A stretch of DNA of 64,000 bases from Struthio camelus (Eukaryota; Chordata; Aves; Struthioniformes; Struthionidae), in the NCBI RefSeq assembly GCF_040807025.1, contig NC_090943.1, forward strand, positions 2,501 through 66,500. Direction: 5' to 3'. This document shows positions 546 to 53,150 of this stretch, one piece after another. Each line of letters opens with the position of its first letter. Within the stretch, counting starts at the first letter, position 1. Under the pieces are notes generated by a model. The model was not told where the DNA came from, searched no databases, and saw only the letters and a list, made by a program, of their open reading frames with translations. Position numbers and translations under genes: made by a program.

Positions 546-559
546 TAGTGGTGGGTGGG

Positions 560-21400: not shown

Positions 21401-24400
21401 GCAGTGCTAAGAGTTCTGGGGGGCCCGAAGACAGCTCTGGGGCACAGGGAAACCTGCCAAAGTAGTCCCGAGGGCAGCAGAGGGGGCCCTCAAGGCGTGT
21501 GCCTAGCTAAAAGACCACTCTGGGGAAGGAGGAGGAGCTCAGGAGGGGATCTGGGCCACCTAGACAGTGCCTAAGGGATCTGGGGGGCCAAAAAACAGCT
21601 CTGGGGCACAACGAGTACTGCAATTGTAGTTCAGAAGTCACGAGAGGGCTTCTAAGGGCTCTGCATGGCCACAAAGAGACTCTGGGGAAGGAGGAGGAGC
21701 TCAGGAGGGGGTCTGGGCCACCTAGACCGTTCCTGAGGGCTCAGCACGAGCAAGAGCCAGCTCTGGCTAGCAAGGAAGAGCCAGAGAGTGCTGTGGAGTA
21801 CTCTAGAGCAGTGCGAAGGGGCCTAGGGAGCCAAGATCCAGCTCTGGGGCACAGGGAAACCTGCCAGAGTAGTCCCGAGGGCCCCAGAGGGGGCCCTTAA
21901 GGGTTTACATGGCCCAAAACCCCACTCTAGGGAAGGGGGAGGAGCTGAGGAAGGGGTCTGGGCCACCTAGACAGTGCCTAAGGGGTCTGGAGAGCCAAAA
22001 GACAGCTCTGGGGCACGCCAAAGGTCTCCCCAGGGGCTCTGAGGTGGAGAGAGCAGTGCTAAGAGCTGTGGGGGGGCCGAAGACAGCTCTGGGGCAGAGG
22101 GAAACCTGCCAGAGTATTCCCGAGGGCACCAGAGGGGACCCTCAAGGCGTGTGCCAGGCCAAAAGGAGACTCTGGGGGAAAAGGAAGACCTCTGGAGGGG
22201 GTCTGGGCCACCTAGACCTTTCCTGAGGGCTCGGCACGAGCAAGGGACAGCTCTGGGCAGCAAGGAAGAGCCAAAGAGTGGTGCGGAGCCCTCTAGAGCA
22301 GTGTGAAGGGGCCTAGGGAGCCAAGATCCAGCTCTGGGGCACAGGGACACCTGCCAGAGTAGTGCCGAGGGCACCAGAGGGGGCCCTCAAGGCGTGTGCC
22401 TAGCCAAAAGACCACTCTGGGGAAGGAGGAGGAGCTGAGGAGGGGCTCTGGGCCACCTAGACAGTGCCTAAGGGGTCTGGAGGGCAAAAAGACAGCTCTG
22501 GGGCATGCCAAAGGTCTCCCCAGGGGCTCTGAGGTGGAGAGAGCAGTGCTAACAGTTCTGGGGGGCACCTACACAGCTCTGGGGCAGAGGGAAACCTGCC
22601 AAAGTAGTGCCGAGGGCAGCAGAGGGGGCCCTCGAGGCGTGTGCCTAGCCAAAAGGCAACTCTGGGGAAGGAGGAGGAGCTGAGGAGGGCTCTGGGCCAC
22701 CTAGACAGTGCCTAAGGGGTCCGGAGAGCCAAAAGACAGCTCTGGGACACAACGAGTACTGCAATTGTAGTTCAGAAGTCACGAGAGGGCTTCTAAGGGC
22801 TCTGCATGGCCACAAAGAGACTCTGGGGAAGGAGGAGGAGCTCAGGAGGGGGTCTGGGCCACCTAGACCTTGCCTGAGGGCTCAGCACGAGCAAGAGACA
22901 GCTCTGGCTAGCAAGGAAGAGCCAAAGAGTGCTGCGGAGTGCTCTAGAGAGTTGCGAAGGGGCCTAGGGAGCCAAGATCCAGCTCTGGGGCACAGGGAAA
23001 CCTGCCAGAGTAGTGCCGAGGGCCCCAGAGGGGGCCCTCAAGGCGTGTGCCTAGCCAAAAGACAACTCTGGGGAAGGAGGAGGAGCTCAGGAGGGGCTCT
23101 GGGCCACCTAGACAGTGCCTAAGGGGTCCGGAGAGCCAAAAGACAGCTCTGGGGCACGCCAAAGGTCTCCGCAGGGGCTCTGAGGTGGAGACAGCAGTGC
23201 TAAGAGCTGTGGGGGGCCCGAAGACAGCTCTGGGGCACAGGGAAACCTGCCAGAGTAGTCCCGAGGGCACCAGAGGGGGCCCTCAAGGCGTGTGCCTAGC
23301 CAAAAGACAACTCTGGGGAAGGAGGAGGAGCTGAGGAAGGGGTCTGGGCCACCTAGACAGTGCCTAAGGGGTCCGGAGGGCCAGAAGACAGCTCTGGGGC
23401 ACGCCAAAGGTCTCCGCAGGGGCTCTGAGGTGGATAGAGCAGTGCTAAGAGCTATGGGGGGCCCCAACACAGCTCTGGGGCAACCCAAAGGTCTCCGCAG
23501 GGGATCTGAGGTGGAGATAGCAGTGTTAAGAGCTCTGCGGGCCCCGAAGACAGCTCTGGGGCACAGGGAAACCTGCCAGAGTAGTGCCTAAGGGCCCCAG
23601 AGGGGGCCCTCAAGGGTTTACATGGCCGAAAACCCCATTCTGGGGAAGGAGGAGGAGCTGAGGAGGGGTCTGGGCCACCTAGACAGTGCCTAAGGGGTCC
23701 GGAGAGCCAAAAGACAGCTCTGGGGAACGCCAAAGGTCTCCGCAGGGGCTCTGAGGTGGATAGAGCAGTGCTAAGAGCTATGGGGGGCCCCAACACAGCT
23801 CTGGGGCACCCCAAAGGTCTCCCCAGGGGCTCTGAGGTGGAGAGAGCAGTGCTAAGAGCTGTGGGGGGCCCGAAGACAGCTCTGGGGCACAGGGAAACCT
23901 GCCAGAGTAGTCCCGAGGGCACCAGAGGGGGCCCTCAAGGCGCGTGCCAGGCCAAAAGGAGACTCTGGGGGAAAAGGAAGACCTCTGGAGGGGGTCTGGG
24001 CCACCTAGACCTTTCCTGAGGGCTCGGCACGAGCAAGGGACAGCTCTGGGCAGCAAGGAAGAGCCAAAGAGTGGTGCGGAGCCCTCTAGAACAGTGCGAA
24101 GGGGCCTAGGGAGCCAAGATCCAGCTCTGGGGCACAGGGAAACCTGCCAGAGTAGTCCCGAGGGCACCAGAGGGGGCCCTCAAGGGTTTACATGACCCAA
24201 AACCCCACTCTAGGGAAGGAGGAGGAGCTGAGGAGGGGTCTGGGCCACCTAGACAATGCCTAAGGGGTCTGGGGGGCCAAAAGACTGCTCTGGGGCACGC
24301 CAAAGGTCTCCGCAGGGGCTCTGAGGTGGAGAGAGCAGTGCTAAGAGCTGTGGGGGGGCCGAAGACAGCTCTGGGGCACAGGGAAACCTGCCAGAGTAGT

Positions 24401-27400
24401 CCCGAGGGCAGCAGAGGGGGCCCTCAAGGCGTGTGCCTAGCCAAAAGGCAACTCTGGGGGAAAAGGAAGACCTCTGGAGGGGGTCTGGGCCACCTAGACC
24501 GTTCCTGAGGGCTCAGCACGAGCAAGGGACAGCTCTGGCTAGCAAGGAAGAGCCAGAGAGTGGTGCGGAGCGCTCTAGAGCAGTGCGAAGGGGCCTAGGG
24601 AGCCAAGATCCAGCTCTGGGGCACAGGGAAACCTGCCAGAGTAGTGCCGAGGGCCCCAGAGGGGGCCCTCAAGGCGTGTGCCTAGCCAAAAGACAACTCT
24701 GGGGAAGGAAGAGGAGCTGAGGAGGGGATCCGGGCCACCTAGACAGTGCCTAAGGGATCTGGAGGGCCAAAAAACAGCTCTGGGACACAACGAGTACTGC
24801 AATTGTAGTTCAGAAGTCACGAGAGGGCTTCTAAGGGCTCTGCATGGCCACAAAGAGACTCTGGGGAAGGAGGAGGAGCTCAGGAGGGGGTCTGGGCCAC
24901 CTAGACAGTGCCTAAGGGCTCAGTACGAGCAAGAGACATCTCTGGCTAGCAAGGAAGAGCCAAAGAGTGCTGCGGAGTGCTCTAGAGCAGTGTGAAGGGG
25001 CCTAGGGAGCCAAGATCCAGCTCTAGGGCACAGGGAAACCTGCCAGAGTAGTGCCGAGGGCCCCAGAGGGGGCCCTCAAGGCGTGTGCCTAGCCAAAAGA
25101 CAACTCTGGGGAAGGAGGAGGAGCTGAGGAGGGGTCTGGGCCACCTAGACAGTGCCTAAGGGGTCCGGAGAGCCAAAAGACAGCTCTGGGGCACGCCAAA
25201 GGTCTCCGCAGGGGCTCTGAGGTGGAGACAGCAGTGCTAAGAGCTCTGTGGGCCCCGAAGACAGCTCTGGGGCAGAGGGAAACCTGCCAGAGTAGTCCCG
25301 AGGGCACCAGAGGGGGCCCTCAAGGGTTTACATGACCCAAAACCCCACTCTAGGGAAGGAGGAGGAGCTGAGGAGGGGGTCTGGGCCACCTAGACAGTGC
25401 CTAAGGGGTCCGGAGGGCCAAAAGAGTGCTGTGGGGCACCCCAAAAGTCTGCCCAGGGGCTCTGAGGTGGAGACAGCAGTGCTAAGAGTTCTGGGGGGCC
25501 CGAAGACAGCTCTGGGGCACAGGGAAACCTGCCAAAGTAGTCCCGAGGGCAGCAGAGGGGGCCCTCAAGGCGTGTGCCTAGCTAAAAGACCACTCTGGGG
25601 AAGGAGGAGGAGCTCAGGAGGGGATCTGGGCCACCTAGACAGTGCCTAAGGGATCTGGGGGGCCAAAAAACAGCTCTGGGGCACAACGAGTACTGCAATT
25701 GTAGTTCAGAAGTCACGAGAGGGCTTCTAAGGGCTCTGCATGGCCACAAAGAGACTCTGGGGAAGGAGGAGGAGCTCAGGAGGGGGTCTGGGCCACCTAG
25801 ACCGTTCCTGAGGGCTCAGCACGAGCAAGAGCCAGCTCTGGCTAGCAAGGAAGAGCCAGAGAGTGCTGTGGAGTACTCTAGAGCAGTGCGAAGGGGCCTA
25901 GGGAGCCAAGATCCAGCTCTGGGGCACAGGGAAACCTGCCAGAGTAGTGCTGAGGGCCCCAGAGGGGGCCCTCAAGGGTTTACATGGCCCAAAACCCCAT
26001 TCTGGGGAAGGGGGAGGAGCTGAGGAGGGCTCTGGGCCACCTAGACAGTGCCTAAGGGGTCTGGGGGGCCAAAAGACTGCTCTGGGGCACCCCAAAGGTC
26101 TCCGCAGGGGCTCTGAGGTGGAGAGAGCAGTGCTAAGAGCTGTGGGGGGGCCGAAGACAGCTCTGGGGCACAGGGAAACCTGCCAGAGTAGTCCCGAGGG
26201 CACCAGAGGGGACCCTCAAGGCGTGTGCCTAGCCAAAAGGCAACTCTGGGGGAAAAGGAAGACCTCTGGAGGGGGTCTGGGCCACCTAGACCTTTCCTGA
26301 GGGCTCAGCACGAGCAAGGGACAGCTCTGGGCAGCAAGGAAGAGCCAGAGAGTGGTGCGGAGCCCTCTAGAGCAGTGTGAAGGGGCCTAGGGAGCCAAGA
26401 TCCAGCTCTGGGGCACAGGGAAACCTGCCAGAGTAGTCCCGAGGGCACCAGAGGGGGCCCTCAAGGCGTGTGCCTAGCCAAAAGACAACTCTGGGGAAGG
26501 AAGAGGAGCTGAGGAGGGGATCCGGGCCACCTAGACAGTGCCTAAGGGATCTGGGGGCCAAAAAACAGCTCTGGGACACAACGAGTACTGCAATTGTAGT
26601 TCAGAAGTCACGAGAGGGCTTCTAAGGGCTCTGCATGGCCACAAAGAGACTCTGGGGAAGGAGGAGGAGCTCAGGAGGGGGTCTGGGCCACCTAGACCGT
26701 TCCTGAGGACTCAGCACGAGCAAGAGACAGCTCTGGCTAGCAAGGAAGAGCCAAAGAGTGCTGTGGAGTGCTCTAGAGAGTTGTGAAGGGGCCTAGGGAG
26801 CCAAGATCCAGCTCTGGGCACAGGGAAACCTGCCAGAGTAGTGCTGAGGGCCCCAGAGGGGGCCCTTAAGGGTTTACATGGCCCAAAACCCCACTCTAGG
26901 GAAGGGGGAGGAGCTGAGGAAGGGGTCTGGGCCACCTAGACAGTGCCTAAGGGGTCTGGAGAGCCAAAAGACAGCTCTGGGGCACGCCAAAGGTCTCCCC
27001 AGGGGCTCTGAGCTGGATAGAGCAGTGCTAAGAGCTGTGGGGGGGCCGAAGACAGCTCTGGGGCAGAGGGAAACCTGCCAGAGTAGTCCCGAGGGCACCA
27101 GAGGGGGCCCTCAAGGGTTTACATGACCCAAAACCCCACTCTAGGGAAGGAGGAGGAGCTGAGGAAGGGGTCTGGGCCACCTAGACAGTGCCTAAGGGGT
27201 CTGGAGAGCCAAAAGACTGCTCTGGGGCACGCCAAAGGTCTCCGCAGGGGCTCTGAGGTGGAGAGAGCAGTGCTAAGAGCTGTGGGGGGGCCGAAGACAG
27301 CTCTGGGGCAGAGGGAAACCTGCCAGAGTAGTCCCGAGGGCACCAGAGGGGGCCCTCAAGGCGTGTGCCAGGACAAAAGGAGACTCTGGGGGAAAAGGAA

Positions 27401-30400
27401 GACCTCTGGAGGGGGTCTGGGCCACCTAGACCTTTCCTGAGGGCTCGGCACGAGCAAGGGACAGCTCTGGGCAGCAAGGAGGAGCCAAAGAGTGGTGCGG
27501 AGCCCTCTAGAGCAGTGCGAAGGGGCCTAGGGAGCCAAGATCCAGCTCTGGGGCACAGGGACACCTGCCACAGTAGTGCCGAGGGCACCAGAGGGGGCCC
27601 TCAAGGCGTGTGCCTAGCCAAAAGACAACTCTGGGGAAGGAGGAGGAGCTGAGGACGGCGTCTGGGCCACCTAGACAGTGCCTAAGGGGTCCGGAGGGCC
27701 AAAACAGTGCTGTGGTCTCCCCAGGGACTCTGAGGTGGAGAGAGCAGTGCTAAGAGCTGTGGGGGGCACCTACACAGCTCTGGGGCAGAGGGAAACCTGC
27801 CAGAGTAGTCCTGAGGTCACCAGAGGGGGCCCTCAAGGGTTTACATGACCCAAAACCCTACTCTAGGGAAGGAGGAGGAGCTGAGGAGGGGGTCTGGGCC
27901 ACCTAGACAGTGCCTAAGGGGTCCGGAGGGCCAAAAGAGTGCTGTGGGGCACCCCAAAAGTCTGCCCAGGGGCTCTGAGGTGGAGACAGCAGTGCTAAGA
28001 GCTGTGGGGGGGCCGAAGACAACTCTGGGGCACAGGGAAACCTGCCAGAGTAGTCCCGAGGGCAGCAGAGGGGGCCCTCAAGGCGTGTGCCTAGCCAAAA
28101 GACAACTCTGGGGAAGGAGGAGGAGCTCAGGAGGGGCTCTGGGCCACCTAGACAGTGCCTAAGGGGTCTGGAGGGCAAAAAGACAGCTCTGGGGCACCCC
28201 AAAGGTCTCCGCAGGGGCTCTGAGGTGGAGACAGCAGTGCTAAGAGCTCTGTGGGCCCCGAAGACAGCTCTGGGGCAGAGGGAAACCTGCCAGAGTAGTC
28301 CCGAGGGCACCAGAGGGGGCCCTCAAGGGTTTACATGACCCAAAACCCCACTCTAGGGAAGGAGGAGGAGCTGAGGAGGGGGTCTGGGCCACCTAGACAG
28401 TGCCTAAGGGGTCCGGAGGGCCAAAAGAGTGCTGTGGGGCACCCCAAAAGTCTGCCCAGGGGCTCTGAGGTGGAGACAGCAGTGCTAAGAGTTCTGGGGG
28501 GCCCGAAGACAGCTCTGGGGCACAGGGAAACCTGCCAAAGTAGTCCCGAGGGCAGCAGAGGGGGCCCTCAAGGCGTGTGCCTAGCTAAAAGACCACTCTG
28601 GGGAAGGAGGAGGAGCTCAGGAGGGGCTCTGGGCCACCTAGACAGTGCCTAAGGGATCTGGGGGGCCAAAAAACAGCTCTGGGGCACAACGAGTACTGCA
28701 ATTGCAGTTCAGAAGTCACGAGAGGGCTTCTAAGGGCTCTGCATGGCCACAAAGAGACTCTGGGGAAGGAGGAGGAGCTCAGGAGGGGGTCTGGGCCACC
28801 TAGACCGTTCCTGAGGGCTCAGCATGAGCAAGGGACAGCTCTGGCTAGCAAGGAAGAGCCAGAGAGTGGTGTGGAGTACTCTAGAGCAGTGCGAAGGGGC
28901 CTAGGGAGCCAAGATCCAGCTCTGGGCACAGGGAAACCTGCCAGAGTAGTGCCGAGGGCCCCAGAGGGGGCCCTCGAGGGTTTACATGGCCCAAAACCCC
29001 ATTCTGGGGAAGGGGGAGGAGCTGAGGAGGGGTCTGGGCCACCTAGACAGTGCCTAAGGGGTCTGGAGAGCCAAAAGACAGCTCTGGGGCACGCCAAAGG
29101 TCTCCGCAGGGGCTCTGAGGTGGAGAGAGCAGTGCTAAGAGCTGTGGGGGGGCCGAAGACAGCTCTGGGGCACAGGGAAACCTGCCAGAGTATTCCCGAG
29201 GGCACCAGAGGGGACCCTCAAGGCGTGTGCCAGGACAAAAGGAGACTCTGGGGGAAAAGGAAGACCTCTGGAGGGGGTCTGGGCCACCTAGACCTTTCCT
29301 GAGGGCTCGGCACGAGCAAGGGACAGCTCTGGGCAGCAAGGAAGAGCCAAAGAGTGGTGCGGAGCCCTCTAGAGCAGTGCGAAGGGGCCTAGGGAGCCAA
29401 GATCCAGCTCTGGGGCACAGGGACACCTGCCACAGTAGTCCCGAGGGCCCCAGAGGGGGCCCTCAAGGCGTGTGCCTAGCCAAAAGACAACTCTGGGGAA
29501 GGAGGAGGAGCTGAGGACGGCGTCTGGGCCACCTAGACAGTGCCTAAGGGGTCCGGAGGGCCAAAACAGTGCTGTGGTCTCCCCAGGGGCTCTGAGCTGG
29601 ATAGAGCAGTGCTAAGAGCTGTGGGGGGCACCTACACAGCTCTGGGGCACAGGGAAACCTGCCAGAGTAGTCCCGAGGGCACCAGAGGGGGCCCTCAAGG
29701 GTTTACATGACCCAAAACCCCACTCTAGGGAAGGAGGAGGAGCTGAGGAGGGGGTCTGGGCCACCTAGACAGTGCCTAAGGGGTCCGGAGGGCCAAAAGA
29801 GTGCTGTGGGGCACCCCAAAAGTCTGCCCAGGGGCTCTGAGGTGGAGACAGCAGTGCTAAGAGTTCTGGGGGGCCCGAAGACAGCTCTGGGGCACAGGGA
29901 AACCTGCCAAAGTAGTCCCGAGGGCAGCAGAGGGGGCCCTCAAGGCGTGTGCCTAGCTAAAAGACCACTCTGGGGAAGGAGGAGGAGCTCAGGAGGGGAT
30001 CTGGGCCACCTAGACAGTGCCTAAGGGATCTGGGGGGCCAAAAAACAGCTCTGGGGCACAACGAGTACTGCAATTGCAGTTCAGAAGTCACGAGAGGGCT
30101 TCTAAGGGCTCTGCATGGCCACAAAGAGACTCTGGGGAAGGAGGAGGAGCTCAGGAGGGGGTCTGGGCCACCTAGACCGTTCCTGAGGGCTCAGCACGAG
30201 CAAGAGACATCTCTGGCTAGCAAGGAGGAGCCAAAGAGTGCTGCGGAGTGCTCTAGAGAGTTGCGAAGGGGCCTAGGGAGCCAAGATCCAGCTCTGGGCA
30301 CAGGGAAACCTGCCAGAGTAGTGCTGAGGGCCCCAGAGGGGGCCCTTAAGGGTTTACATGGCCCAAAACCCCACTCTAGGGAAGGGGGAGGAGCTGAGGA

Positions 30401-31130
30401 GGGGGTCTGGGCCACCTAGACAGTGCCTAAGGGGTCTGGAGGGCAAAAAGACACCTCTGGGGCACCCCAAAGGTCTCCCCAGGGGCTCTGAGGTGGAGAG
30501 AGCAGTGCTAAGAGCTCTGCGGGGCCTGAAGACAGCTCTGGGGCAGAGGGAAACCTGCCAGAGTAGTCCCAAGGGCACCAGAGGGGGCCCTCAAGGGTTT
30601 ACATGGCCCAAAACCCCATTCTGGGGAAGGGGGAGGAGCTGAGGAAGGGGTCTGGGCCACCTAGACAGTGCCTAAGGGGTCTGGGGGGCCAAAAGACTGC
30701 TCTGGGGCACCCCAAAGGTCTCCGCAGGGGCTCTGAGGTGGAGAGAGCAGTGCTAAGAGCTGTGGGGGGGCCGAAGACAGCTCTGGGGCACAGGGAAACC
30801 TGCCAGAGTAGTCCCGAGGGCACCAGAGGGGACCCTCAAGGCGTGTGCCAGGACAAAAGGAGACTCTGGGGAAGGAGGAGGAGCTGAGGAGGGGGTCTGG
30901 GCCACCTAGACCTTTCCTGAGGGCTCGGCACGAGCAAGGGACAGCTCTGGCTAGCAAGGAGGAGCCAGAGAGTGGTGCGGGGTGCTCTAGAGCGGTGCAA
31001 AGGGGCCTAGGGAGCCAAGATCCAGCTCTGGGGCACAGGGAAACCTGCCAGAGTAGTGCCGAGGGCACCAGAGGGGGCCCTCAAGGCGTGTGCCTAGCCA
31101 AAAGACAACTCTGGGGAAGAAGGAGGACCT
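15400..31130. repeat. Satellite core with 245-bp and 1,373-bp periods
   Basis: Highly similar monomers (AAAAGACAGCTCTGGGGCAC ... CTAGACAGTGCCTAAGGGGT) are organised as triplets of about 245 bp at 15.4-17.1 kb. Elsewhere they form longer higher-order units. A variant beginning TTTACATGACCCAAAACCCC recurs with its ATG at 17137, 18510, 19883, 21257, 25332, 28335 and 29707. The many open frames on both strands are stop-poor repeat artefacts and are not annotated as genes. Confidence 0.9.
17137..22440. repeat. Consecutive 1,373-bp higher-order repeat copies
   Basis: Successive starts 17137, 18510, 19883 and 21257 give intervals of 1373, 1373 and 1374. A second marker (TTTACATGGCCCAAAACCCC type) at 19161, 20535 and 21909 gives 1374 twice. 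Near identity over more than a kilobase implies recent unequal exchange or conversion. The pattern breaks after about 22.4 kb and partly resumes at 28335-29707 (1372). Confidence 0.9.
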
Positions 31131-34100
31131 CCATGGCGGCCTCTGGGGAACAAGAACAGTCCCAAGGGGTCTGGAGGGCCTAAAGAGGACTCTGGGGCAC
31201 AGCGTTCGGTTCAAGAGTCGTCCCGAGTATACTAGATGGCTGCTAGGAGGGCCGGAGGGCCACAGCGGGGCTCCAGGACAAACCAAGGTCTCCCCAGGGC
31301 TTCTGATGGGACTAGAGGGGGGCTAAAGGGGCTGGACGTCCAAAAGACACCTCTGGGGCCCAAAGGAGGCGGCAAGAGTAGGCCATAGCACACTGGAGGG
31401 GGCCTTCAAGGGGTTTATGGGGGCCAGCAGATGTCTGTGGTGAGAAGAAGGTGGCCTAAAGGGGGCTCCAGAGCAGAAGAGAGGGCTGCTGAGGGGGCTG
31501 GAGGGCCAACCCAGGGCTCCAGAGGGTTTGTGAGTCGACTCCAGGGGGCCTAAGGGGTCTCGAGGGCCAACATACAGCCTCGGGGAAGAAGACAGGCCAA
31601 AAGAGTAGCCCAGAACACACTAGAGGGATGCTGAGGAGACCCGATGGCCAACAAATTAAAACCTGGGGAACAAGGGTGACCTCAGGAGGGCTTCAGAGGC
31701 AACTAGACAGTTCCTAGCCAAAGGAACTATTTGCCAGCGGAGGGCTGGCAGACAGCTCTGGGCAGCAAGGAAGACACAAAGAGTGGTCCAGAGTGCCCTG
31801 GAGTGGTGCTAAGGGGCCTGAGGAGCCAAGATACAGCTTTAGGGCTGACAGAATGTTGGAAGAGTAGGCTAGAGCGCACTAGAGGACCGCTTGGGCCTCC
31901 ATGTCCCTGAAAAATGACTCTAGGGAACAAGGAAGACCTGAGGAGGGGTTCTGAGCAGATAAACGGGCGCCTGTAGGTGCTGGAGGGCCAGAAGACAGCT
32001 CTGGAGCACAACAAGCATCCGAGGACTGGTTCTGAGTAACAAATGCCTCTGGAAGGTTTCTGAAGGGACTAGAGGGCCAACAGAGGTCTGTGGGTCAAAA
32101 TTCAAGGCCAAAGTGGAGAGTAGGGCAGCCTAGAGGGGTGCTAAGGGCTCCAGAGGGTTAACACAGAACTCTGGGGTACAACGAAATCCTACAGGGCAGT
32201 TCCAAGGGGACTACAGGGGTCCTAAGGGGTCCAAAGGGCCTGACTGTTCTGGGGCAGAAAGAAGTTTGGAAGAGTCATTCAGAGTGCACTAGAGGGATTC
32301 TCAGGGGTCTAACATTGCCAAAAAAAGACTCAGGGGTCAGGAGGGCCAAAAGACAGCTCTGTGGCATAATAAAGGCCTCTAGAGGGGTTCAGGGGTGACT
32401 GGAAAGGTTCTAGTGGGTCTAGAGGGCCAATAGAGCTCTCTGGGGCACAGGAAAGGCCAAAAGATGGGTACCGAGTTCACTAGAAGGGTCATAAGGGGGT
32501 TATATGATCAAAGGAAGCCTCTGGGAACAAAGGTCCTAAAGGATCCTGAGGGGGAAAAGAGAGGTCCTAAGGGATCTGGAGGGCTAAAAGAGGGCTCTGG
32601 GACACAATTTTGGCCAAAAGAGACACCTAGAGTAGACTAGGGAGGTTGTAAGTGGGCTAGAAAGAAAAAAAAAAAAAAAAAAAAAAAGCAAGGGGGCACA
32701 ATGAAGGCAAAAGGAGGGGTTCTGATGGGACTGGAGTGGTCCCCTGAGAGCTAGAAGGCTAACAGAGGGCTCCTGCACAACGCAGGCCAAAAGAGGGGTA
32801 CTGAAGGAATTAGGTCCTAAGAGAGCTACTGGACCCCAAGAGGGCTCTGGGGCACTACAAAGGCCTCAGGAGGGGTTCTGAGGGTACTAGAGGGCTCCTA
32901 AGGACTCTACACACCCAAGAGAGCCTCTGGTGCACAATGGAGGGCTTCTGAGAGGATTGGAGCAGGCCTAGGGGGACTAGACATCAAAGAGAGGCCTCTA
33001 GGGCACAGTGAAGGCTTTGGGAGCAGTTTTGAGGTAACTAGATTAGAAAATGGAAGAGTCTTGAGAAGATTAGAGGGCATTCATTGGGTTCTAGGATGGC
33101 ATGTCAGAAGGATGTCTCCAGCTCAAATCAAGGGCTCAGGAAGGGGTTGTTAGGGAGCCCAAGGGCCAAAGGAGGCATTCTGTGGGGATTAGATGCCGGG
33201 GTCCTGAGGGGAAGAGACAGCACACAGTGGGCACTGGGGCACCCCAAAATGGAAAAGGACTGGTTCTGATGGGACTAGGTTGCAAATGGCCCTGGAGCGC
33301 GACAGGAGAACACAGGGTTCTGGGGTGCTTTGAAGAACAAACATGGGGGTTCTGAAGGGAGTAGAAGATAATTGAGAAGGCATAAGGCAGGCTGCAAGGA
33401 AATGGAGGGCTATAGTATGCACTAAGAGGCAAAGAAGGAGAACAGAAAGGGATCTGAGAGAAACAGAACTCCCAAGGAGGAGCTCAGGTGGGATTTGGGG
33501 GCATTTAGGCAATGCTGGAACACAATGAAGGCCAGCAGTTTTGAGGCTACATGCCACATGGATTGATTTTGATCAGACTAGAGAACACAGAGAGCTCTGA
33601 GGTAAAAGAAAGGAAGATGGAGGAGTCTTGAGGGGACTGGAAGGAAAGGGGACCTGATGGGATAGAGGGCACACAGAACGGTCATAGGGATAGGGCATAG
33701 AGAGGACTCTGTGGTGCAATCAATAGAAAAGGAGGGCTTCAGGGCACACTGAAAGGGTGCCATGAGCGCCCAGGGTTCTGGAGTGCCCTCAAGGCAAACA
33801 AAGGTTCCTGAGGGGAGCGTGTGGCAATCAGAGGGCTGCTGATGGGACTAAGAGACAGTGAGGTGGGCCCTAAGGGGCTCAGAGGGCAAACAGAGGCATC
33901 CTGAGAGGACTACAGGGAAAAACAAAGGCTCTGGGATGCACTAATGGCAAATGGAGGGGTTTTGAGGGACCCAGAAGAAAGAGAGAGGGGACTTAATAGG
34001 ACAAAAGAACAAACATAGGAGTCTTGATGCTACCAGAAGACCCACAGACACTAAATGGCAGAGTAATCATGCAGGAACTAGAAAGCAGCAAAGACTTCCG

Positions 34101-35530: not shown

Positions 35531-36290
35531 CAGCATGCCCTGCAGATTAAAATGGCCGCCGGGAAAGCTACTGCTGGAAGACTACTCCTCCCGGCATGCA
35601 GAGCGAAGCAACATGGCCGCCCGGAAGCTCAGTGCCGGAAGTTTACTACTCCCAGCATGCAGAGTGAAACAACATGGCCGCCCGGAAGCCCCGTGACGGA
35701 AGACGACTGCTCCCGGCAGGCAGAGCGAAACAAAATGGCCTCCCGGAAGCTCAGTGCCGGAAGTTTACTACTCCCGGCAGGCAGAGCGAAACAACATGGC
35801 CTCCCGGAAGTCCCGTGCCGGAAGGCTACTGCTCCCGGCACACCGCGCAAAGCAACATGGCCTCCCGGAAGCCCCGTGACGGAAGACTACTGCTCCCGGC
35901 AGGCAGAGCGAAACAACATGGCCTCCCGGAAGCCCCGTACCGGAAGACTACTCCTCCCAGTATGCAGAGCGAACCAACATGGCCGCCCGGAAGCCCCGTG
36001 CCGGAAGACTACTGCTCCCGGCATGCACGGCGAACCAACATGGCCGCCCGGAAGCCCCGTGCCGGAAGACTACTCCTCCCGGCATGCAGAGTGAAACAAC
36101 ATGGCCGCCCGGAAGCCCCGTGCCGGAAGACTACTGCTCCCGGCATGGCCCGCGAAACAACATGGCCGCCCGGAAGCCCCGTGCCGGAAGACTACTGCTC
36201 CCGGCATGGCCCGCGAAACAACATGGCCGCCCGGAAGCCCCGTGCCGGAAGACTACTGCTCCCGGCATGCCGCGGTCCTCAGCGCTCTGT
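35530..36290. repeat. 61-bp array, 12 units with YY1/ETS/ZNF143-like motifs
   Basis: The ATG of ATGGCC(G/T)CC falls at 35552 and then every 61 bp to 36223, twelve times with no indel. Each unit contains, in order, ACATGGCCGCC (YY1-like), CCGGAAG (ETS/GABP-like), a second GCCGGAAG, and ACTACTGCTCCCGGCATGC, close to the ZNF143/SBS consensus ACTACAAYTCCCAGMATGC. Substitutions among units mostly spare these cores. The array leads straight into a CpG island. I infer an amplified promoter module; binding is not shown. Confidence 0.9.
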
Positions 36291-41160: not shown

Positions 41161-41219
41161 GATGGACCCAGGCAGCCTGCCCGGGACAGCCCTCGACCCG
41201 CTCCAGCCCCGCTCACCCG

Positions 41220-43992: not shown

Positions 43993-44219
43993 TTACTTAG
44001 TCCTCAGCGCTGCCCCTGGGAGACAGAAATAACAGGCGTTTGTTATCACTAGTTGCCCACGCCAGAACACCTCCTTCTGTAGCAGTTTCTGCCGAGATGA
44101 AGGGTCCGCTAAACTTCGTTCCGGCTTCCTTGTTTTATCCGGTGCCTTAGGTATTAATCGCCAAAAACCGCTCGCCCGTCTTTTCTCTTCGTCAGCTTTT
44201 GCTATCGTTGCTTCCATCC
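43993..44219 (-). CDS. Candidate exon with strong acceptor and ATG
   Basis: Minus-strand acceptor CCCTGTTTGTTACAG precedes 44219. Two bases later an ATG in good context opens a 74-codon frame, basic and helix-prone at first (MEATIAKADEEKRRASGFWR). The frame does not join in phase with the ATG at 46514, so if real it either starts here or intermediate exons were missed. No family recognised. Confidence 0.25.
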
Positions 44220-45959: not shown

Positions 45960-46150
45960 GTATTTTTCCCCTGTCCACCTTCTCGTTTCCCTAGCTACAA
46001 CTCTCAAGTAAACGTTCTTGGGGGCACGCTAACTGCACCTGGCTCAAAGTGACCTTAAATCGGTTTGGTCCGGTAGCTTTAAGCTTCCTTGCGACTTACC
46101 AGCACCCTCGGGCAAGCCTGCCGCGACGGGAGCCGTCCGCCCAGCGCCGC
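45960..46150. repeat. Diverged subtelomeric module fused to the CpG island
   Basis: CTTGGGGGCACGCTAACTGC...GACCTTAAATC matches 53.30-53.35 kb. GCGACTTACCAGCACCCTCG...GGGAGCCGTCC matches 53.65-53.71 kb (GCCACTTACCAACACCCTTG...AGGAGCTATCC). Relative to the 53-kb copy about 300 bp are missing between the two parts. Confidence 0.65.
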
Positions 46151-47090
46151 TCCGGGGCCCGCCAGCCTCGCCGCTCCTCCCGGCCGCCTCCGCAGGGGCG
46201 AGCGCCCGCCCCGGCCGCGCCGGGGAGGAACCGGGGCCCTGAGGGCGACACACGGCAAACGGACGGTCAAACCCGCGCTCCCGGCAGACCCTGGGCCGCG
46301 CTGCCGGCGCCAGGCCCGAGCCCCCTCCCCAAACCTCGCCCCGCACCTCCGCCTCCACGCAGCGACGGCCCCAGCGGGCAGAAACCGCCCGACGCCCGCG
46401 ACCGCCCGAGGGGACGCGCTCACCTCACCGGGGCCCCCAGATCCCCGACTCCGGGCGGCCTCGGCCCGCACCCGCCGCCGTCCCAGCGAAAACTCCGTCC
46501 CCGCGCGCCGCCATGCTGCTCCCCGCCGCCGCACATGCGCCGCCCTCCGCGCATGCGCCGATCGCGAACAGGGCGCGGCAGCGCCGGGGGCCCGGCTATC
46601 GAGCACCGCGCATGCGCCGGCTCCGCCCCGGGCGGGAGGGGAGGGGAGGGGAGGAGCGAGGAGGGGAGTGGGAGGGACGGAGGGAAGGGGAGGGGGCGAG
46701 GGGGGGAGCGGGAGGGGGGGCCAGGCGGGGAAGAGCGCCCCCGCGTGCTCCCGGCGCGGGGCTGCAGCCCGCCGCCCCCGCCGCGGCCCCGCGGGGCTCG
46801 CGCTCAGCGGCGGGCGCCCCGGGGCTGCTCAGTCCGTGCCCGAGAGCCCGCGGCGATCAGCGAGCGGGCTCCGGTGCTGCACCGGTGCGAGGGCACCGCG
46901 GAGCAGCGCCGAGGCGGCACTGCCCGTCCCCGCGACAACAGGAAGGAAGCACCAGTACGGAAAAGCACTCTGCGCTGCGGGTCTGTGAGCACGGGGAAGG
47001 GGCGAGGAGCGCGGCCCCTTCGCTTACCCGTTACCCAAACACGGCGGAGTAGGGGCGAACACGGCGACCGGCACTGCGCGGGTGCGCGCC
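46100..47090. promoter_or_regulatory. CpG island with NRF1-type sites
   Basis: Extremely GC-rich. CCGCGCATGCGCCG occurs at 46547-46560 and again at 46606-46619, and a GCACATGCGCC variant at about 46531. On the minus strand an ATG in strong context (GCAGCATGGCGGC) at 46514 opens 86 nt ending at a consensus donor (CCCCG|GTGAGG) at 46429, a plausible first exon of a leftward gene. A (GAGGGG)n stretch at about 46636-46730 can form G-quadruplexes on the plus strand. It directly borders the 76-bp array. Confidence 0.65.
46429..46514 (-). CDS. Candidate first coding exon in CpG island
   Basis: ATG at 46514 in a Kozak-like context, 28 codons plus two bases, Gly/Ala/Arg-rich, then GTGAGG. Three NRF1-like sites lie 15-105 bp upstream. 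No downstream exon joins it in phase with confidence. The protein is unknown. Confidence 0.3.
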
Positions 47091-47095
47091 GGCTG

Positions 47096-47225
47096 GCTGC
47101 AGTATTCTCCGTACGCCGGCGAGGGCAGCGGCGGCTGCAGAACTGGCGTTTCGACACCGGAGGGCAGCAGTGAGCACAGGGAAACCAGTGCGCAGGCGGG
47201 CGCCTTACCGGTGCAGTACTGGCTT
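47096..47225. repeat. Decayed left edge of the 76-bp array
   Basis: GGCTGCAGTATTCTCC...GGCGAGGGCAGCGGCGGCTG CAGAAC...TTTCGACACCGGAGGGCAGC are imperfect copies of the 76-bp unit that lack the GCGCATGCGC palindrome. Confidence 0.75.
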
Positions 47226-50200
47226 GTCGACACGCGAGGGCAGCAGGGAGCACGGCGGGATCACCGCGCATGCGCTCGCTCCCTGGGTGCAGTACTGCAC
47301 TGTCGACACGCGAGGGCAGCAGGGAGCAGGGCGGGATCACCGCGCATGCGGTCGCTCCCTGGCTGCAGTACTGCGCTGTCGACACCCGAGGGCAGCAGGG
47401 AGCACGGCGGGAACACCTAGCATGCGCTCACTCCCTGGCTGCAGTACTGCGCTGTCGACACGCGAGGGCAGCAGGGAGCAGGGCGGGATCACCGCGCATG
47501 CGCTCCCTCCCTGGCTGCAGTACTGCGTTGTCGACACTCGAGGGCAGCAGGGAGCAGGGCGGGATCACCGCGCATGCGCTCCCTCCCTGGCTGCAGTACT
47601 GCACTGTCGACACGCGAGGGCAGCAGGGAGCACGGCGGGATCACCGCGCATGCGCTCGCTCCCTCGCTGCAGTACTGCGCTGTCGACACGCGAGGGCAGC
47701 AGGGAGCAGGGCGGGATCACCGCGCATGCGCTCGCTCCCTGGCTGCAGTACTGCGCTGTCGACACCCGAGGGCAGCAGGGAGCAGGGCGGGATCACCGCG
47801 CATGCGCTCGCTCCCTGGCTGCAGTACTGCACTGTCGACACGCGAGGGCAGCAGGGAGCACGGCGGGATCACCGCGCATGCGCTCCCTCCCTGGCTGCAG
47901 TACTGCGCTGTCGACGCCTGATGGCAGCAGGGAGCACGGCGGGATCACCGCGCATGCGCTCGCTCCCTGGCTGCAGTACTGCGCTGTCGACACCCGAGGG
48001 CAGCAGGGAGCAGGGCGGGATCACCGCGCATGCGCTCGCTCCCTGGCTGCAGTACTGCGTTGTCGACACGCGAGGGCAGCAGGGAGCAGGGCGGGATCAC
48101 CGCGCATGCGGTCGCTCCCTGGGTGCAGTACTGCGTTGTCGACGCCTGATGGCAGCAGGGAGCAGGGCGGGATCACCGCGCATGCGCTCACTCCCTGGCT
48201 GCAGTAGTGCGCTGTCGACACCCGGGGGCAGCAGGGAGCAGGGCGGGATCACCGCGCATGCGGTCGCTCCCTGGCTGCAGTACTGCACTGTCGACACTCG
48301 AGGGCAGCAGGGAGCACGGCGGGATCACCGCGCATGCGCTCGCTCCCTGGCTGCAGTACTGCACTGTCGACACGCGAGGGCAGCAGGGAGCACGGCGGGA
48401 TCACCGCGCATGCGCTCGCTCCCTGGCTGCAGTACTGCGCTGTCGACACCCGAGGGCAGCAGGGAGCAGGGCGGGATCACCGCGCATGCGCTCACTCCCT
48501 GGCTGCAGTACTGCGCTGTCGACACTCGAGGGCAGCAGGGAGCACGGCGGGATCACCGCGCATGCGCTCCCTCCCTGGCTGCAGTACTGCGCTGTCGACA
48601 CGCGAGGGCAGCAGGGAGCAGGGCGGGATCACCGCGCATGCGGTCGCTCCCTGGCTGCAGTACTGCGTTGTCGACACCCGGGGCAGCAGGGAGCAGGGCG
48701 GGATCACCGCGCATGCGCTCGCTCCCTGGCTGCAGTACTGCGCTGTCGACACCCGGGGGCAGCAGGGAGCACGGCGGGATCACCGCGCATGCGCTCGCTC
48801 CCTGGCTGCAGTACTGCGTTGTCGACACGCGAGGGCAGCAGGGAGCAGGGCGGGATCACCGCGCATGCGCTCACTCCCTGGCTGCAGTACTGCGCTGTCG
48901 ACACGCGAGGGCAGCAGGGAGCACGGCGGGATCACCGCGCATGCGGTCGCTCCCTGGGTGCAGTACTGCGTTGTCGACACGCGAGGGCAGCAGGGAGCAC
49001 GGCGGGATCACCGCGCATGCGCTCGCTCCCTGGGTGCAGTACTGCGTTGTCGACACCCGAAGGCAGCAGGGAGCACGGCGGGATCACCGCGCATGCGCTC
49101 ACTCCCTGGCTGCAGTACTGCGTTGTCGACACTCGAGGGCAGCAGGGAGCACGGCGGGATCACCGCGCATGCGCTCCCTCCCTGGGTGCAGTACTGCACT
49201 GTCGACACCCGAGGGCAGCAGGGAGCACGGCGGGATCACCGCGCATGCGCTCGCTCCCTGGCTGCAGTACTGCACTGTCGACACCCGAGGGCAGCAGGGA
49301 GCACGGCGGGATCACCGCGCATGCGCTCACTCCCTGGCTGCAGTACTGCGTTGTCGACACTCGAGGGCAGCAGGGAGCAGGGCGGGATCACCGCGCATGC
49401 GCTCCCTCCCTGGGTGCAGTACTGCACTGTCGACACCCGAGGGCAGCAGGGAGCACGGCGGGATCACCGCGCATGCGCTCGCTCCCTGGCTGCAGTACTG
49501 CGTTGTCGACACGCGAGGGCAGCAGGGAGCACGGCGGGATCAACGCGCATGCGGTCACTCCCTGGCTGCAGTACTGCGTTTTCGACACGCGAGGGCAGCA
49601 GGGAGCAGGGCGGGATCACCGCGCATGCGCTCGCTCCCTGGCTGCAGTACTGCGCTGTCGACACCCGAGGGCAGCAGGGAGCACGGCGGGATCACCGCGC
49701 ATGCGCTCGCCCCCTGGCTGCAGTACTGCGTTGTCGACACCCGAGGGCAGCAGGGAGCACGGCGGGATCACCGCGCATGCGCTCGCTCCCTGGCTGCAGT
49801 ACTGCGCTGTCGACGCCTGATGGCAGCAGGGAGCACGGCGGGATCACCGCGCATGCGCTCGCTCCCTGGCTGCAGTACTGCACTGTCGACACCCGAGGGC
49901 AGCAGGGAGCAGGGCGGGATCACCGCGCATGCGCTCACTCCCTGGGTGCAGTACTGCGTTGTCGACACCCGAGGGCAGCAGGGAGCAGGGCGGGATCACC
50001 GCGCATGCGCTCGCTCCCTGGCTGCAGTACTGCGCTGTCGACACCCGAGGGCAGCAGGGAGCAGGGCGGGATCACCGCGCATGCGCTCGCTCCCTGGGTG
50101 CAGTACTGCGTTGTCGACGCCTGATGGCAGCAGGGAGCACGGCGGGATCACCGCGCATGCGCTCGCCCCCTGGGTGCAGTACTGCGTTGTCGACACCCGA

Positions 50201-52200
50201 GGGCAGCAGGGAGCACGGCGGGATCACCGCGCATGCGGTCGCTCCCTGGCTGCAGTACTGCGCTGTCGACGCCTGATGGCAGCAGGGAGCACGGCGGGAT
50301 CACCGCGCATGCGCTCGCTCCCTGGCTGCAGTACTGCACTGTCGACACCCGAGGGCAGCAGGGAGCAGGGCGGGATCACCGCGCATGCGCTCACTCCCTG
50401 GGTGCAGTACTGGTTGTCGACGCCTGATGGCAGCAGGGAGCAGGGCGGGATCACCGCGCATGCGCTCGCTCCCTGGCTGCAGTACTGCGCTGTCGACACC
50501 CGAGGGCAGCAGGGAGCAGGGCGGGATCACCGCGCATGCGCTCACTCCCTGGGTGCAGTACTGGTTGTCGACGCCTGATGGCAGCAGGGAGCAGGGCGGG
50601 ATCACCGCGCATGCGCTCGCTCCCTGGCTGCAGTACTGCACTGTCGACACGCGAGGGCAGCAGGGAGCACGGCGGGATCACCGCGCATGCGGTCACTCCC
50701 TGGCTGCAGTACTGCGTTGTCGACACTCGAGGGCAGCAGGGAGCAGGGCGGGATCACCGCGCATGCGCTCCCTCCCTGGCTGCAGTACTGCGTTGTCGAC
50801 ACGCGAGGGCAGCAGGGAGCAGGGCGGGATCACCGCGCATGCGCTCGCTCCCTGGCTGCAGTACTGCGCTGTCGACACACGGGGCAGCAGGGAGCAGGGC
50901 GGGATCACCGCGCATGCGCTCGCTCCCTGGCTGCAGTACTGCACTGTCGACACGCGAGGGCAGCAGGGAGCACGGCGGGATCACCGCGCATGCGCTCGCT
51001 CCCTGGCTGCAGTACTGCGCTGTCGACACGCGAGGGCAGCAGGGAGCACGGCGGGATCACCGCGCATGCGCTCGCTCCCTGGCTGCAGTACTGCGCTGTC
51101 GACACCCGAGGGCAGCAGGGAGCAGGGCGGGATCACCGCGCATGCGCTCGCACCCTGGCTGCAGTACTGCACTGTCGACACGCGAGGGCAGCAGGGAGCA
51201 CGGCGGGATCACCGCGCATGCGCTCGCTCCCTGGCTGCAGTACTGCGCTGTCGACACGCGAGGGCAGCAGGGAGCACGGCGGGATCACCGCGCATGCGCT
51301 CACTCCCTGGGTGCAGTACTGCGTTGTCGACACGCGAGGGCAGCAGGGAGCAGGGCGGGATCACCGCGCATGCGCTCACTCCCTGGGTGCAGTACTGCGT
51401 TGTCGACGCCTGATGGCAGCAGGGAGCACGGCGGGATCACCGCGCATGCGCTCCCTCCCTGGCTGCAGTACTGCACTGTCGACACGCGAGGGCAGCAGGG
51501 AGCAGGGCGGGATCACCGCGCATGCGCTCGCTCCCTGGCTGCAGTACTGCACTGTCGACACGCGAGGGCAGCAGGGAGCACGGCGGGATCACCGCGCATG
51601 CGCTCACTCCCTGGGTGCAGTACTGCGCTGTCGACGCCTGATGGCAGCAGGGAGCACGGCGGGATCACCGCGCATGCGCTCCCTCCCTGGCTGCAGTACT
51701 GCGTTGTCGACACGCGAGGGCAGCAGGGAGCACGGCGGGATCAACGCGCATGCGCTCGCTCCCTGGGTGCAGTACTGCGTTGTCGACGCCTGATGGCAGC
51801 AGGGAGCAGGGCGGGATCACCGCGCATGCGCTCACTCCCTGGGTGCAGTACTGCGTTGTCGACGCCTGATGGCAGCAGGGAGCACGGCGGGATCACCGCG
51901 CATGCGCTCGCTCCCTGGCTGCAGTACTGCGCTGTCGACACGCGAGGGCAGCAGGGAGCACGGCGGGATCACCGCGCATGCGCTCCCTCCCTGGCTGCAG
52001 TACTGCACTGTCGACACCCGAGGGCAGCAGGGAGCAGGGCGGGATCACCGCGCATGCGCTCGCTCCCTGGCTGCAGTACTGCGCTGTCGACACCCGAGGG
52101 CAGCAGGGAGCACGGCGGGATCACCGCGCATGCGCTCCCTCCCTGGCTGCAGTACTGCACTGTCGACACCCGAGGGCAGCAGGGAGCACAGGGAAGCCCA
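47226..52200. repeat. 76-bp array, 66 units with NRF1 and CTCF-like sites
   Basis: Phase marker GTCGAC runs from 47226 to 52162: 4,936 bp = 65 x 76 minus 4. The four missing bases are single-base deletions that I can place (near 48679, 50411, 50563 and 50880). One unit near 49570 has TTCGAC instead. Each unit carries CGCGCATGCGCT (NRF1 core palindrome) and TGCAGTACTG followed by ACAC(G/C)CGAGGGCAGCAG, resembling the CTCF upstream element plus core. All are in the same orientation. Units vary at a few fixed positions only. Frames up to 1,102 codons exist because the unit lacks stops in most phases; they are not genes. Confidence 0.97.
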
Positions 52201-52720
52201 GTTCGCCCTCGCTGGCTGCAGTACTGCGTTGTCATCGCCCGAGGACTTCATGGGGGGAGTCGGGGGCAGTGCTCCTGCGTTTTCCGCCTGGCTGCAGTTC
52301 TGATCTGTAATCAGGTTATGGCAGCTGTGAGCAGTGCGGCGGCGCTGCGCAGGGGTGAGCCGTCCTGCTGCAGCGGTGGAATTCCATCGCCCGAGGGCAG
52401 CTCTGCGCAGATCCGCACCAGTTCGCAGTCGTTCCTCGGCTGGCTGCAGTACTGGGGTTTAACCACCCGAGGGCAGCACTGTGCCTGCGTTAATCACCGG
52501 GCTGCAGTACTGTTTGTCGTCACTTGGGGGCAGCAGGCAGCAGAGCGGTGCTGCTGCGCCCGCCTGAGCTGAGCGGCTGCAGTAGTGGGGTGTCGCCGCC
52601 CGAGGGCAGCAAGGAGCTGGTCCGCCTCAGTGCGCGTGCAAGACACCGCTGTCTGCAGTACGGGGCCGCCCGACCAGAGGGCAGCAGCGGGGGCGGTGCA
52701 ACCATGCGCATGCGCCGGTC
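52200..52720. repeat. Decayed right edge of the 76-bp array
   Basis: About seven degenerate units of irregular length. They keep CTGCAGTACTG and the CCCGAGGGCAGCA block (for example 52440-52475, 52500-52535, 52578-52612) while the NRF1 palindrome and flanks are mostly lost. A GACCAGAGGGCAGCAG variant lies near 52671-52686. Confidence 0.8.
52705..52716. promoter_or_regulatory. NRF1-like site
   Basis: TGCGCATGCGCC, a near-perfect match to YGCGCAYGCGCR, at the outer border of the decayed array. Confidence 0.6.
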
Positions 52721-53150
52721 GGCTGGTGGCCACGTGGAGCGTCCTCTGGCGGCGGCCGCTCCCCGCCCCCCCCCCCCCCCCCAAAAAGCGGCCGTTTGGG
52801 CCTCCCCGACGCTTTCGTATCGTCCCCGCTGGGCACCTCTCTCCTGCCGGAGGAGACGGTGGCGGGGACCTCCCGAGCACCCCGTGTCCCGGCGGCGGCG
52901 CAGCACCGGGGCGCAGCAGCGCCGAGGGGTGGCGGCAGCACCTGGGCGAGCAGGCGGAGCAGGCCTCGGGCGGTGGGGCGGACCGGGTGCCCGCAGTCAG
53001 GGCCCAGGGCATGGGCCCCAGCCGGGGCTTGCCTTGTCCTCATCGATGTATGGCAAGCTTGCAGCCACTTCCATCTGGTTAGGGAAAACAGCATCATTCC
53101 CTTGTTCCAGCTCTGCTCCTGACGCCTTTCCAGCACCTCCCATTGCAGTG
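52720..53150. other. GC-rich shoulder
   Basis: GC-rich, CpG-containing, with a C homopolymer at about 52767-52782, grading into ordinary DNA. It may be the right half of the island; no gene seen. Confidence 0.4.

What the first reader, a model, noticed from the sequence alone, without database searches (positions are those of the whole stretch)
47226..52200. Sixty-six-unit 76-bp array in which every unit carries an NRF1 palindrome and a bipartite CTCF-like site
Seen directly: period 76, 66 units with only four single-base deletions, each with GCGCATGCGC and with TGCAGTACTG about six bases before a 20-bp block ending GAGGGCAGCAG. Known: NRF1 binds YGCGCAYGCGCR; the CTCF core is CCASYAGRKGGCRS, often preceded by an upstream element resembling TGCAGTNCC. 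The commonest unit matches about 11-12 of 14 core positions. Inference: a dense, one-orientation CTCF/NRF1 platform beside a CpG island in a subtelomere, comparable in idea to human TERRA-promoter repeats or DXZ4. I know of no described avian counterpart.
Basis: partly seen in the sequence, partly recalled or inferred. Interest (0 to 1): 0.88.

Follow-up and report, generated by a model that had tools for sequence, protein, structure and literature searches.

The report
CTCF/NRF1-like repeat cassette at chromosome ends
Many chromosome ends of this animal carry the same cassette, a CpG-rich promoter-like island facing the telomere backed by a long run of near-identical 76-base units that each look like a docking site for the genome-folding protein CTCF and the promoter factor NRF1, which would make chromosome ends a natural test bed for what stacked one-way CTCF sites do.

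Summary
The array is real: 66 units, 61 spacings of 76 and 4 of 75. TGCAGTACTG is exact in 65 units and GCGCATGCGC in 56, so not in "every" unit. It is not isolated. The window is the left end of a 174-Mb contig. The same cassette, a CpG island on the telomere side and a 76-bp array on the inner side, was found at 15 contig ends plus one small contig, with the same polarity at all 15. Four arrays read in full hold 12, 66, 146 and 17 units. Diverged edge units mostly keep the CTCF-like upstream element, its spacing to the core, and the NRF1 half-sites, while the rest is about 50% identical. Arrays keep CpG (o/e 0.89-1.01); the neighbouring 245-bp satellite is at 0.19. Best reading: a telomere-facing promoter plus a co-oriented CTCF barrier, exchanged between ends. 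Binding and transcription are untested. The CTCF core is mid-strength (12.8 of 25.6 bits, recalled matrix). The human TERRA-promoter analogy fits the parts, not the position. My idea that a longer array spreads hypomethylation was refuted.

The parts
47212..52216 (+). Homogeneous 76-bp array, 66 units, with an upstream element TGCAGTACTG, a CTCF-like core (e.g. TCGACACCCGAGGGCAGCA) and an NRF1-like palindrome CGCGCATGCGCT
47212..47287 (+). First unit as an example: U element 47212-47221, CTCF-like core 47227-47245, NRF1-like 12-mer 47265-47276
   Evidence: read with the unit coordinates
47098..47211 (+). Old, diverged units at the telomere-side edge: a 38-base one at 47098 (core -0.6 bits) and a 76-base one at 47136 (13.9 bits)
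52217..52729 (+). Contiguous old units at the inner edge (U at 52217, 52293, 52369, 52445, 52503, 52578, 52654). Cores 16.0 (52445), 13.1 (52503, 52578) and 9.6 bits (52654), but -1.0 at 52293, 5.0 at 52369, and GGCAGC lost at 52217. NRF1-like remnants; a full GCGCATGCGC at 52706
46100..47080 (-). CpG island, GC 0.79, CpG o/e 0.98, with GCGCATGCGC at 46549 and 46608; likely telomere-ward promoter (direction inferred)
46094..47211 (-). Splice-donor-like 9-mers on the minus strand, first bases 47211, 47030, 46431, 46426, 46102 (five of 7 on minus; 0 on plus in 45.5-53 kb outside the array)
536..554 (-). Strong single CTCF-like site (18.3 bits) beside degenerate telomere repeats; also at C1 about 7898 (18.27) and in C3 probe L023 (18.68)
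1..330 (.). Degenerate CCCTAA/CCCTGA telomere-like tract, chromosome end
   Evidence: C1 counterpart begins with CCCTAA repeats after N
15468..31200 (.). 81/245-bp subtelomeric satellite, CpG o/e 0.19 (16-30 kb); seen at eight ends (C1L, C1R, C2L, C3L, C3R, C4L, C4R, C7L) with very different lengths
35552..36270 (.). 61-bp array, 11.8 units, CpG o/e 0.87, with ETS-like CCGGAAG, ZNF143-like ACTACTGCTCCCGGCATGC and YY1-like AACATGGCC elements (motif names recalled)

Best explanation
The array is the inner half of a subtelomeric regulatory cassette shared by many chromosome ends. On the telomere side lies a CpG-island promoter that most likely fires toward the telomere. Behind it lies a tandem bank of composite CTCF+NRF1 sites. 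The NRF1 sites (and the CpG content they protect) keep the island open and act as upstream promoter elements. CTCF, gripping each unit through the upstream element (zinc fingers 9-11) and the core, builds a wall of co-oriented sites whose 3' side faces the chromosome body, so it would stop cohesin arriving from the interior and separate the subtelomeric satellites from the rest of the arm. Copy number changes by unequal exchange, and island plus array are copied between ends by conversion. Shown: sequence, polarity, shared location, better conservation of the motif blocks taken together, CpG retention, unusually high identity of island and array edges between ends. Inferred: conversion as its cause, protein binding, promoter direction, barrier function.
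For: (1) 15 contig ends carry island+array: + at the left ends of C1, C2, C4, C10, C12, C15 and - at the right ends of C1, C2, C3, C4, C9, C11, C16, C18, C24, 28-444 kb from the contig end (the list is capped). The island lies on the telomere side at the 4 ends read in full and in all 11 further 500-base samples, ten ends and contig C125. (2) In 11 edge units (one short left-edge unit left out), identity to the array consensus inside U+core+NRF1 is 0.77 against 0.51 outside; of the 76 circular positions of that mask 2, the real one included, do as well, and 1, the real one, by column information. In the C2L array U differs in 1 of 610 cells. Over 232 units of four arrays: U 9/2320, NRF1 38/2784, core 3' half 38/2320, middle 104/4408, core 5' half 137/2088, spacer 84/1160, tail 182/2552. 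(3) The majority core of the edge units scores 15.8 bits, the array 12.8. (4) CpG o/e is 0.89-1.01 in all four arrays, 0.19 in the 245-bp satellite. At equal C1/C2 identity (96.3-96.5%) CpGs decayed in 9/175 cases in the island and 49/156 in window 8.3-15.5 kb; 1/31 in edge units. (5) C1/C2 identity is 97% in the island and 98-99% in the first edge units but about 80% on both sides. (6) Donor-like sites: 7 on minus, 0 on plus. (7) Human TERRA promoters: 29-bp repeats with two predicted NRF1 sites each, NRF1- and methylation-dependent (PMC6600276, passages). CTCF upstream element: 13-15% of sites, linked to insulator activity, loop on the 3' side of the core (PMC12885311, Introduction read, other passages seen).
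Against: No binding, methylation, RNA or Hi-C data. The CTCF matrix was recalled, not fetched. The array core has A at matrix position 4 and C at position 9 (usual C and A); 35 of 61 full C2L units score below 10 bits. The 5' half of the core varies as much as the spacer within arrays, and the 3' half and NRF1 only a little less than the middle of the unit. Conservation of core columns in edge units does not correlate significantly with matrix information (rho 0.28, p 0.24; one of its ten rows was out of register). In the mask test the single blocks are weak: U 5, core 7, NRF1 34 of 76 positions as good; the edge units are not all independent, and three were chosen from C1L and C2R by eye. Four of the ten edge cores scored are below 5 bits, one of them out of register. 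Shared polarity may simply follow from copying whole subtelomeres. At C5L, C6L and C8L four probes each showed no duplicon (one C5 probe was telomere-like, one C6 probe had an 86-base match). The C2L flank (41-45.6 kb) is CpG-rich unlike the three other ends read and is unexplained.
Confidence: 0.5

Rival explanations
1. Passive GC-rich minisatellite: a CpG-island promoter with one NRF1 and one CTCF site was caught in unequal crossing-over, and the array grows, shrinks and spreads with the subtelomere without doing anything beyond what one site would do.
For: Copy number 12-146 without pattern; exchange between ends could explain homogeneity and shared polarity; at C3R an array unit runs straight into an old edge unit, which I read as a trace of unequal exchange.
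Against: Motif blocks together are better conserved in old units, and U is nearly invariant inside arrays; CpG is kept in all four arrays.
Confidence: 0.27
2. Promoter repeat only: NRF1 drives a telomere-ward lncRNA or gene from array and island; the CTCF-like block is bound weakly or by another zinc-finger protein.
For: Mid-strength core (mostly 9.2-13.9 bits; 4.6-8.4 in 4 of 118 full C2R units); NRF1 palindrome 11/12; minus-strand donor-like sites, one at the array edge; human 29-bp TERRA repeats work with NRF1 (PMC6600276, passages).
Against: The U element is the most conserved block and stands at a fixed 26/27 spacing to the core; core plus U occur together in 3e-5 of random units.
Confidence: 0.17
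3. Telomeric-RNA (TERRA) promoter in the strict human sense.
For: CpG island, repeats, NRF1 and CTCF motifs, subtelomeric place, promoter likely facing the telomere.
Against: 28-444 kb lie between it and the contig end; a strong CTCF-like site sits beside the telomere repeats instead.
Confidence: 0.06

Closest known systems
Human TERRA promoter 61-29-37 repeats (PMC6600276 and PMC5727389, passages seen)
   Same: Subtelomeric CpG island with short tandem repeats, NRF1 sites in each 29-bp repeat, CTCF sites near by, shared among many ends
   Different: Here CTCF-like and NRF1-like sites are in the same 76-bp unit, 12-146 copies, 28-444 kb from the contig end rather than a few kb
DXZ4 / FIRRE / ICCE CTCF macrosatellites (PMC6985041, PMC5899087; listings with abstract starts only)
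   Same: Tandem arrays that bind CTCF, orientation matters
   Different: Unit 76 bp instead of kilobases (recalled), at many chromosome ends instead of the X
D4Z4 subtelomeric macrosatellite at 4q35 (PMC2639723; listing with abstract start)
   Same: Subtelomeric tandem array with CTCF-dependent insulator activity
   Different: 3.3-kb unit; here a 76-bp unit with an NRF1 palindrome
H19 imprinting control region CTCF repeats (recalled)
   Same: Several CTCF sites containing CpG, non-A at matrix position 9
   Different: Few copies, imprinting; imprinting was not tested here

Membership tests
CTCF binding site with upstream element | Core like CCASYAGRKGGCRS | tested here: met
   11-12/14 by reading for the commonest cores; 9.3-13.9 bits of 25.6 for the C2L cores and up to 16.0 in edge units with a recalled matrix; only mid-strength
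CTCF binding site with upstream element | Upstream element at a 2-7 bp linker, same orientation | tested here: met
   TGCAGT at 26/27 from GGC[AG] (5-base gap between 10-base U and 19-base core), 72 in the array region, 0 elsewhere in the window; linker range from PMC12885311 Introduction, whose way of counting the linker may differ
CTCF binding site with upstream element | Bound by CTCF in vivo | not testable with these tools
   no ChIP data
NRF1 binding site | YGCGCAYGCGCR | tested here: met
   GCGCATGCGC in 56 of 66 units, 11/12 of the consensus by reading; several edge units with TGCGCATGCGC or TGCGCGTGCGC
Human-type TERRA promoter | Within a few kb of the telomere | tested here: not met
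   28-444 kb from contig ends
Human-type TERRA promoter | CpG island with tandem repeats holding NRF1 sites | tested here: met
Human-type TERRA promoter | Gives UUAGGG RNA | not testable with these tools
   no RNA data
DXZ4-like CTCF array | Tandem co-oriented CTCF sites | tested here: met
   matrix hits >=9 bits in about 47081-52720: 70 forward, 0 reverse; same polarity at 15 ends
DXZ4-like CTCF array | Hi-C boundary | not testable with these tools
   no Hi-C

The most novel reading that the evidence does not exclude
Most large chromosome arms of this species end in a one-way cohesin wall: a tandem bank of 12 to 146 CTCF sites, all pointing into the chromosome body and all backed by a telomere-facing NRF1 promoter, that closes off each arm from its subtelomeric satellites. 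It is propagated between ends by conversion, so unit number per end would tune end-of-chromosome folding and subtelomeric RNA output. (Array found at 7 of 8 ends of contigs C1-C4; C3L unresolved.)
Probability: 0.3. Interest if true: 0.88.

Novelty: new variant of a known kind. Interest (0 to 1): 0.72.

Why it matters
If bound, these arrays are natural dose series (12, 17, 66, 146 units at different ends of one genome, behind nearly the same island) of co-oriented CTCF sites with the upstream element. They would allow a direct test of how barrier strength depends on the number of stacked CTCF sites, and whether subtelomeric promoters built from NRF1 repeats arose independently in another vertebrate lineage.

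Tried and rejected
Rejected: array length sets the size of a hypomethylated domain. C2L (66 units) has a CpG-rich flank (41-45.6 kb, o/e 0.65-0.85 per kb) and C1L (12 units) does not (0.16-0.47), but the C2R (146 units) and C3R (17 units) flanks are CpG-poor too (0.19-0.44 and 0.25-0.47), so C2L is the exception. Substitutions there are also biased to GC in C2L beyond CpG (C>T plus G>A 333 against 81 the other way), which methylation alone does not explain.

Not favoured: a coding array. Long plus-strand frames (e.g. 47174-50578, 1134 aa) cross the units, but 76 is not a multiple of 3 and the sequence is GC-rich; this was argued, not tested. Not supported: a conserved first exon at about 46430-46520 minus; its reading differs at several residues among the four copies.

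Led nowhere: Rfam on the window, 0 matches. Pfam on ten ORFs, one sub-threshold RNase H-like match, 23.4 bits against a 29.8 cut-off, not pursued. A CR1 3'-end pattern found nothing in the window or C1:1-90000. One search stopped on a division by zero and was rerun. In one search one edge unit (52217) was scored out of register; its value is not used as a score, but that row is in the correlation of that call. One search's edge set (9 units) was enlarged to 11; the 38-base unit at 47098 was left out of both. One search's per-region variation used units picked by TGCAG and GGCAGC and was replaced, which restores skipped units by phase. Paper search gave 0 papers.
Full report
Observation. The array is as described, with small corrections: 66 units from 47212 to about 52216, spacings 61 x 76 and 4 x 75, TGCAGTACTG exact in 65 units, GCGCATGCGC exact in 56 and GCGCATGCGG in 8. 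TGCAGT and the GGC of the core stand 26 or 27 bases apart 72 times in the array region and never elsewhere in the window. Random 76-mers with the array's dinucleotide make-up hold a core of 12.8 bits or more in 1.0% of cases, with the upstream element in place in 0.003%, and with an NRF1 11/12 match as well in 1 of 300,000. The CTCF matrix is recalled.

Where it lies. The window is C2:2501-66500 of a 1.45-Gb genome in 262 contigs; C2 is 173.7 Mb and C2:1-2500 reads N. The window begins with degenerate CCCTAA tracts; at C1 the first readable bases after 7.5 kb of N are CCCTAA repeats. I take this as a chromosome end, telomere at left.

It is a family of cassettes. C1's left end holds the same duplicon with 12 units. 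The right end of C2 holds 146 units in the inverted sense and the right end of C3 17 units. The genome search with a two-unit query gave 319 matches, a lower bound, of which only the best are listed. With contig lengths the listed ones fall at the left ends of C1, C2, C4, C10, C12 and C15, all +, and at the right ends of C1, C3, C4, C9, C11, C16, C18 and C24, all -, plus contig C125 (58.8 kb); C2's right end, known, adds a ninth right end. That is 15 ends, 15 of 15 with the core pointing away from the telomere. Of the first 8 left ends C1, C2 and C4 carry it; C3L and C7L were still inside the 245-bp satellite at the last probe (190 and 56 kb); C5L, C6L and C8L showed no duplicon at four probed positions each, apart from a telomere-like match at C5 and an 86-base match at C6. 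The island lies on the telomere side of the array at the four ends read in full and in all 11 further 500-base samples, ten ends and C125, 83-97% identical to stretches of window 46.3-47.3 kb. Shared polarity is expected if whole subtelomeres are copied, so it is not independent proof of function.

Exchange between ends. C1/C2 identity is about 99% at 32-35.4 and 38-39.5 kb, about 80% at 41-45 kb, 97% in the island, 98-99% in the first 400 bp after the array, then about 72-88% to 54 kb, and fades beyond about 55.4 kb. The island is 94.5-98.1% identical among four ends. A 97-99% block between 80% blocks, including edge-unit spacers that differ by half between units, points to conversion of island plus array between ends rather than constraint alone (inference).

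What is conserved inside the unit. I compared 11 diverged edge units: seven contiguous ones on the inner side and one on the telomere side of C2L, one of C1L and two of C2R, these last three chosen by eye and not all independent. They largely keep the 76-bp phase, with a few shortened units, but only about half of the array's bases outside the motifs. Identity is 0.88 in U, 0.78 in the 15-bp core, 0.67 in the NRF1 12-mer and 0.51 outside all three. Of 76 circular positions of the combined mask 2 are as good, the real one included; by column information only the real one. Singly the blocks are weaker (U 5, core 7, NRF1 34 of 76), NRF1 partly because edge units carry TGCGC where the array has CGCGC. 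The majority sequence of the edge units has the better core TCACCACCCGAGGGCAGCA, 15.8 bits against 12.8, and TGCGCATGCG, so if the edge units are the ancestral type the amplified unit is a weaker CTCF site than its ancestors. Individual edge cores range from -1 to 16 bits. Within four arrays (232 units) mismatches to each array's consensus are 9/2320 in U, 38/2784 in NRF1, 38/2320 in the 3' half of the core, 104/4408 in the middle, 137/2088 in the 5' half of the core, 84/1160 in the spacer and 182/2552 in the tail: U stands out, the 3' core and NRF1 only modestly. Core-column conservation in edge units does not track matrix information significantly (rho 0.28, p 0.24). Of the cores scored in register, only the 52654 unit has A at matrix position 9; this is the main sequence argument against strong CTCF binding.

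CpG. The arrays keep CpG at o/e 0.97, 0.89, 1.01 and 0.93 (C1L, C2L, C2R, C3R), the C2L island 0.98, against 0.19 in the 245-bp satellite and 0.18-0.30 per kb at 53-58 kb. Between C1 and C2 copies 9 of 175 CpGs decayed in the island and 1 of 31 in edge units. A fair control at the same identity (96.3%) is window 8.3-15.5 kb: 49 of 156. The more diverged flanks give 122 of 196 and 36 of 77, and the 99% identical stretches 4 of 28 and 5 of 33. This fits long-term lack of germline methylation of island and array (inference). The C2 left flank 41-45.6 kb is CpG-rich while the same stretch at C1L, C2R and C3R is not; it is also GC-enriched beyond CpG. I have no explanation and it defeats a dose model.

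Transcription. In 45.5-53 kb outside the array, splice-donor-like 9-mers (at least 7 of 9, two of them overlapping) occur 7 times on minus and 0 times on plus, one of them at the array's left border; no shuffled control was run. Of three donor strings checked, two are kept in all four copies and the third in three. This favours transcripts running from array and island toward the telomere. No coding exon was established.

Mechanism. The CTCF upstream element is present in 13-15% of CTCF sites, is bound by fingers 9-11, and goes with insulator activity; loops lie on the 3' side of the core (PMC12885311, Introduction read and other passages seen). Here that side faces the chromosome body at every end found. 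Human TERRA promoters combine a CpG island, 29-bp repeats with two predicted NRF1 sites each and CTCF sites near by, and NRF1 binding rises and drives them on demethylation (PMC6600276, passages; PMC5727389, passages). I therefore take the cassette as a telomere-facing NRF1 promoter with a CTCF barrier behind it (0.5). A passive minisatellite is the main rival (0.27).

Known or new. Tandem CTCF arrays (DXZ4 and relatives; PMC6985041, PMC5899087, listings) and NRF1-bearing subtelomeric promoter repeats are known. I saw no description of a short unit carrying both, or of such arrays at many chromosome ends, in the listings of searches (some lists were capped), nor in the passages seen of the complete chicken genome paper (PMC9974502, no occurrence of CTCF in its main text). 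Those searches cover open-licence papers only, and few of the listed papers were opened.

Noticed in passing
window 35552-36270: A second CpG-rich array, 61 bp x 11.8, whose unit carries ETS-like, ZNF143-like and YY1-like elements (recalled motifs); 16 of 19 bases of a ZNF143 consensus by reading. C1 has a counterpart at about 47.7-48.4 kb.
   Followed up: partly
window 536-554 (-): Strong single CTCF-like site (18.3 bits) beside degenerate telomere repeats, also at C1 about 7898 and in C3 probe L023, its 3' side toward the telomere; positional match to human subtelomeric CTCF/TERRA sites.
   Followed up: partly
window 41000-45600: CpG-rich, GC-rich version of a stretch that is CpG-poor at C1L, C2R and C3R; C1L and C2R are 94.5% alike, C2L only about 80% to either; C>T and G>A differences are unequal (202 and 131).
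   Followed up: partly
window 15468-31200 and ends C1L, C1R, C3L, C3R, C4L, C4R, C7L: 81/245-bp satellite shared by eight ends probed and still present at 190 kb at C3L and C4L; CpG-depleted.
   Followed up: partly
window 750-1599: 17-bp repeat TAAAGAGAGGGAAAGAG, 50 copies, 100% matches by TRF.
   Followed up: no
window 42910-43221 (-): Sub-threshold Pfam match to an RNase H-like reverse-transcriptase domain (23.4 bits, cut-off 29.8).
   Followed up: no
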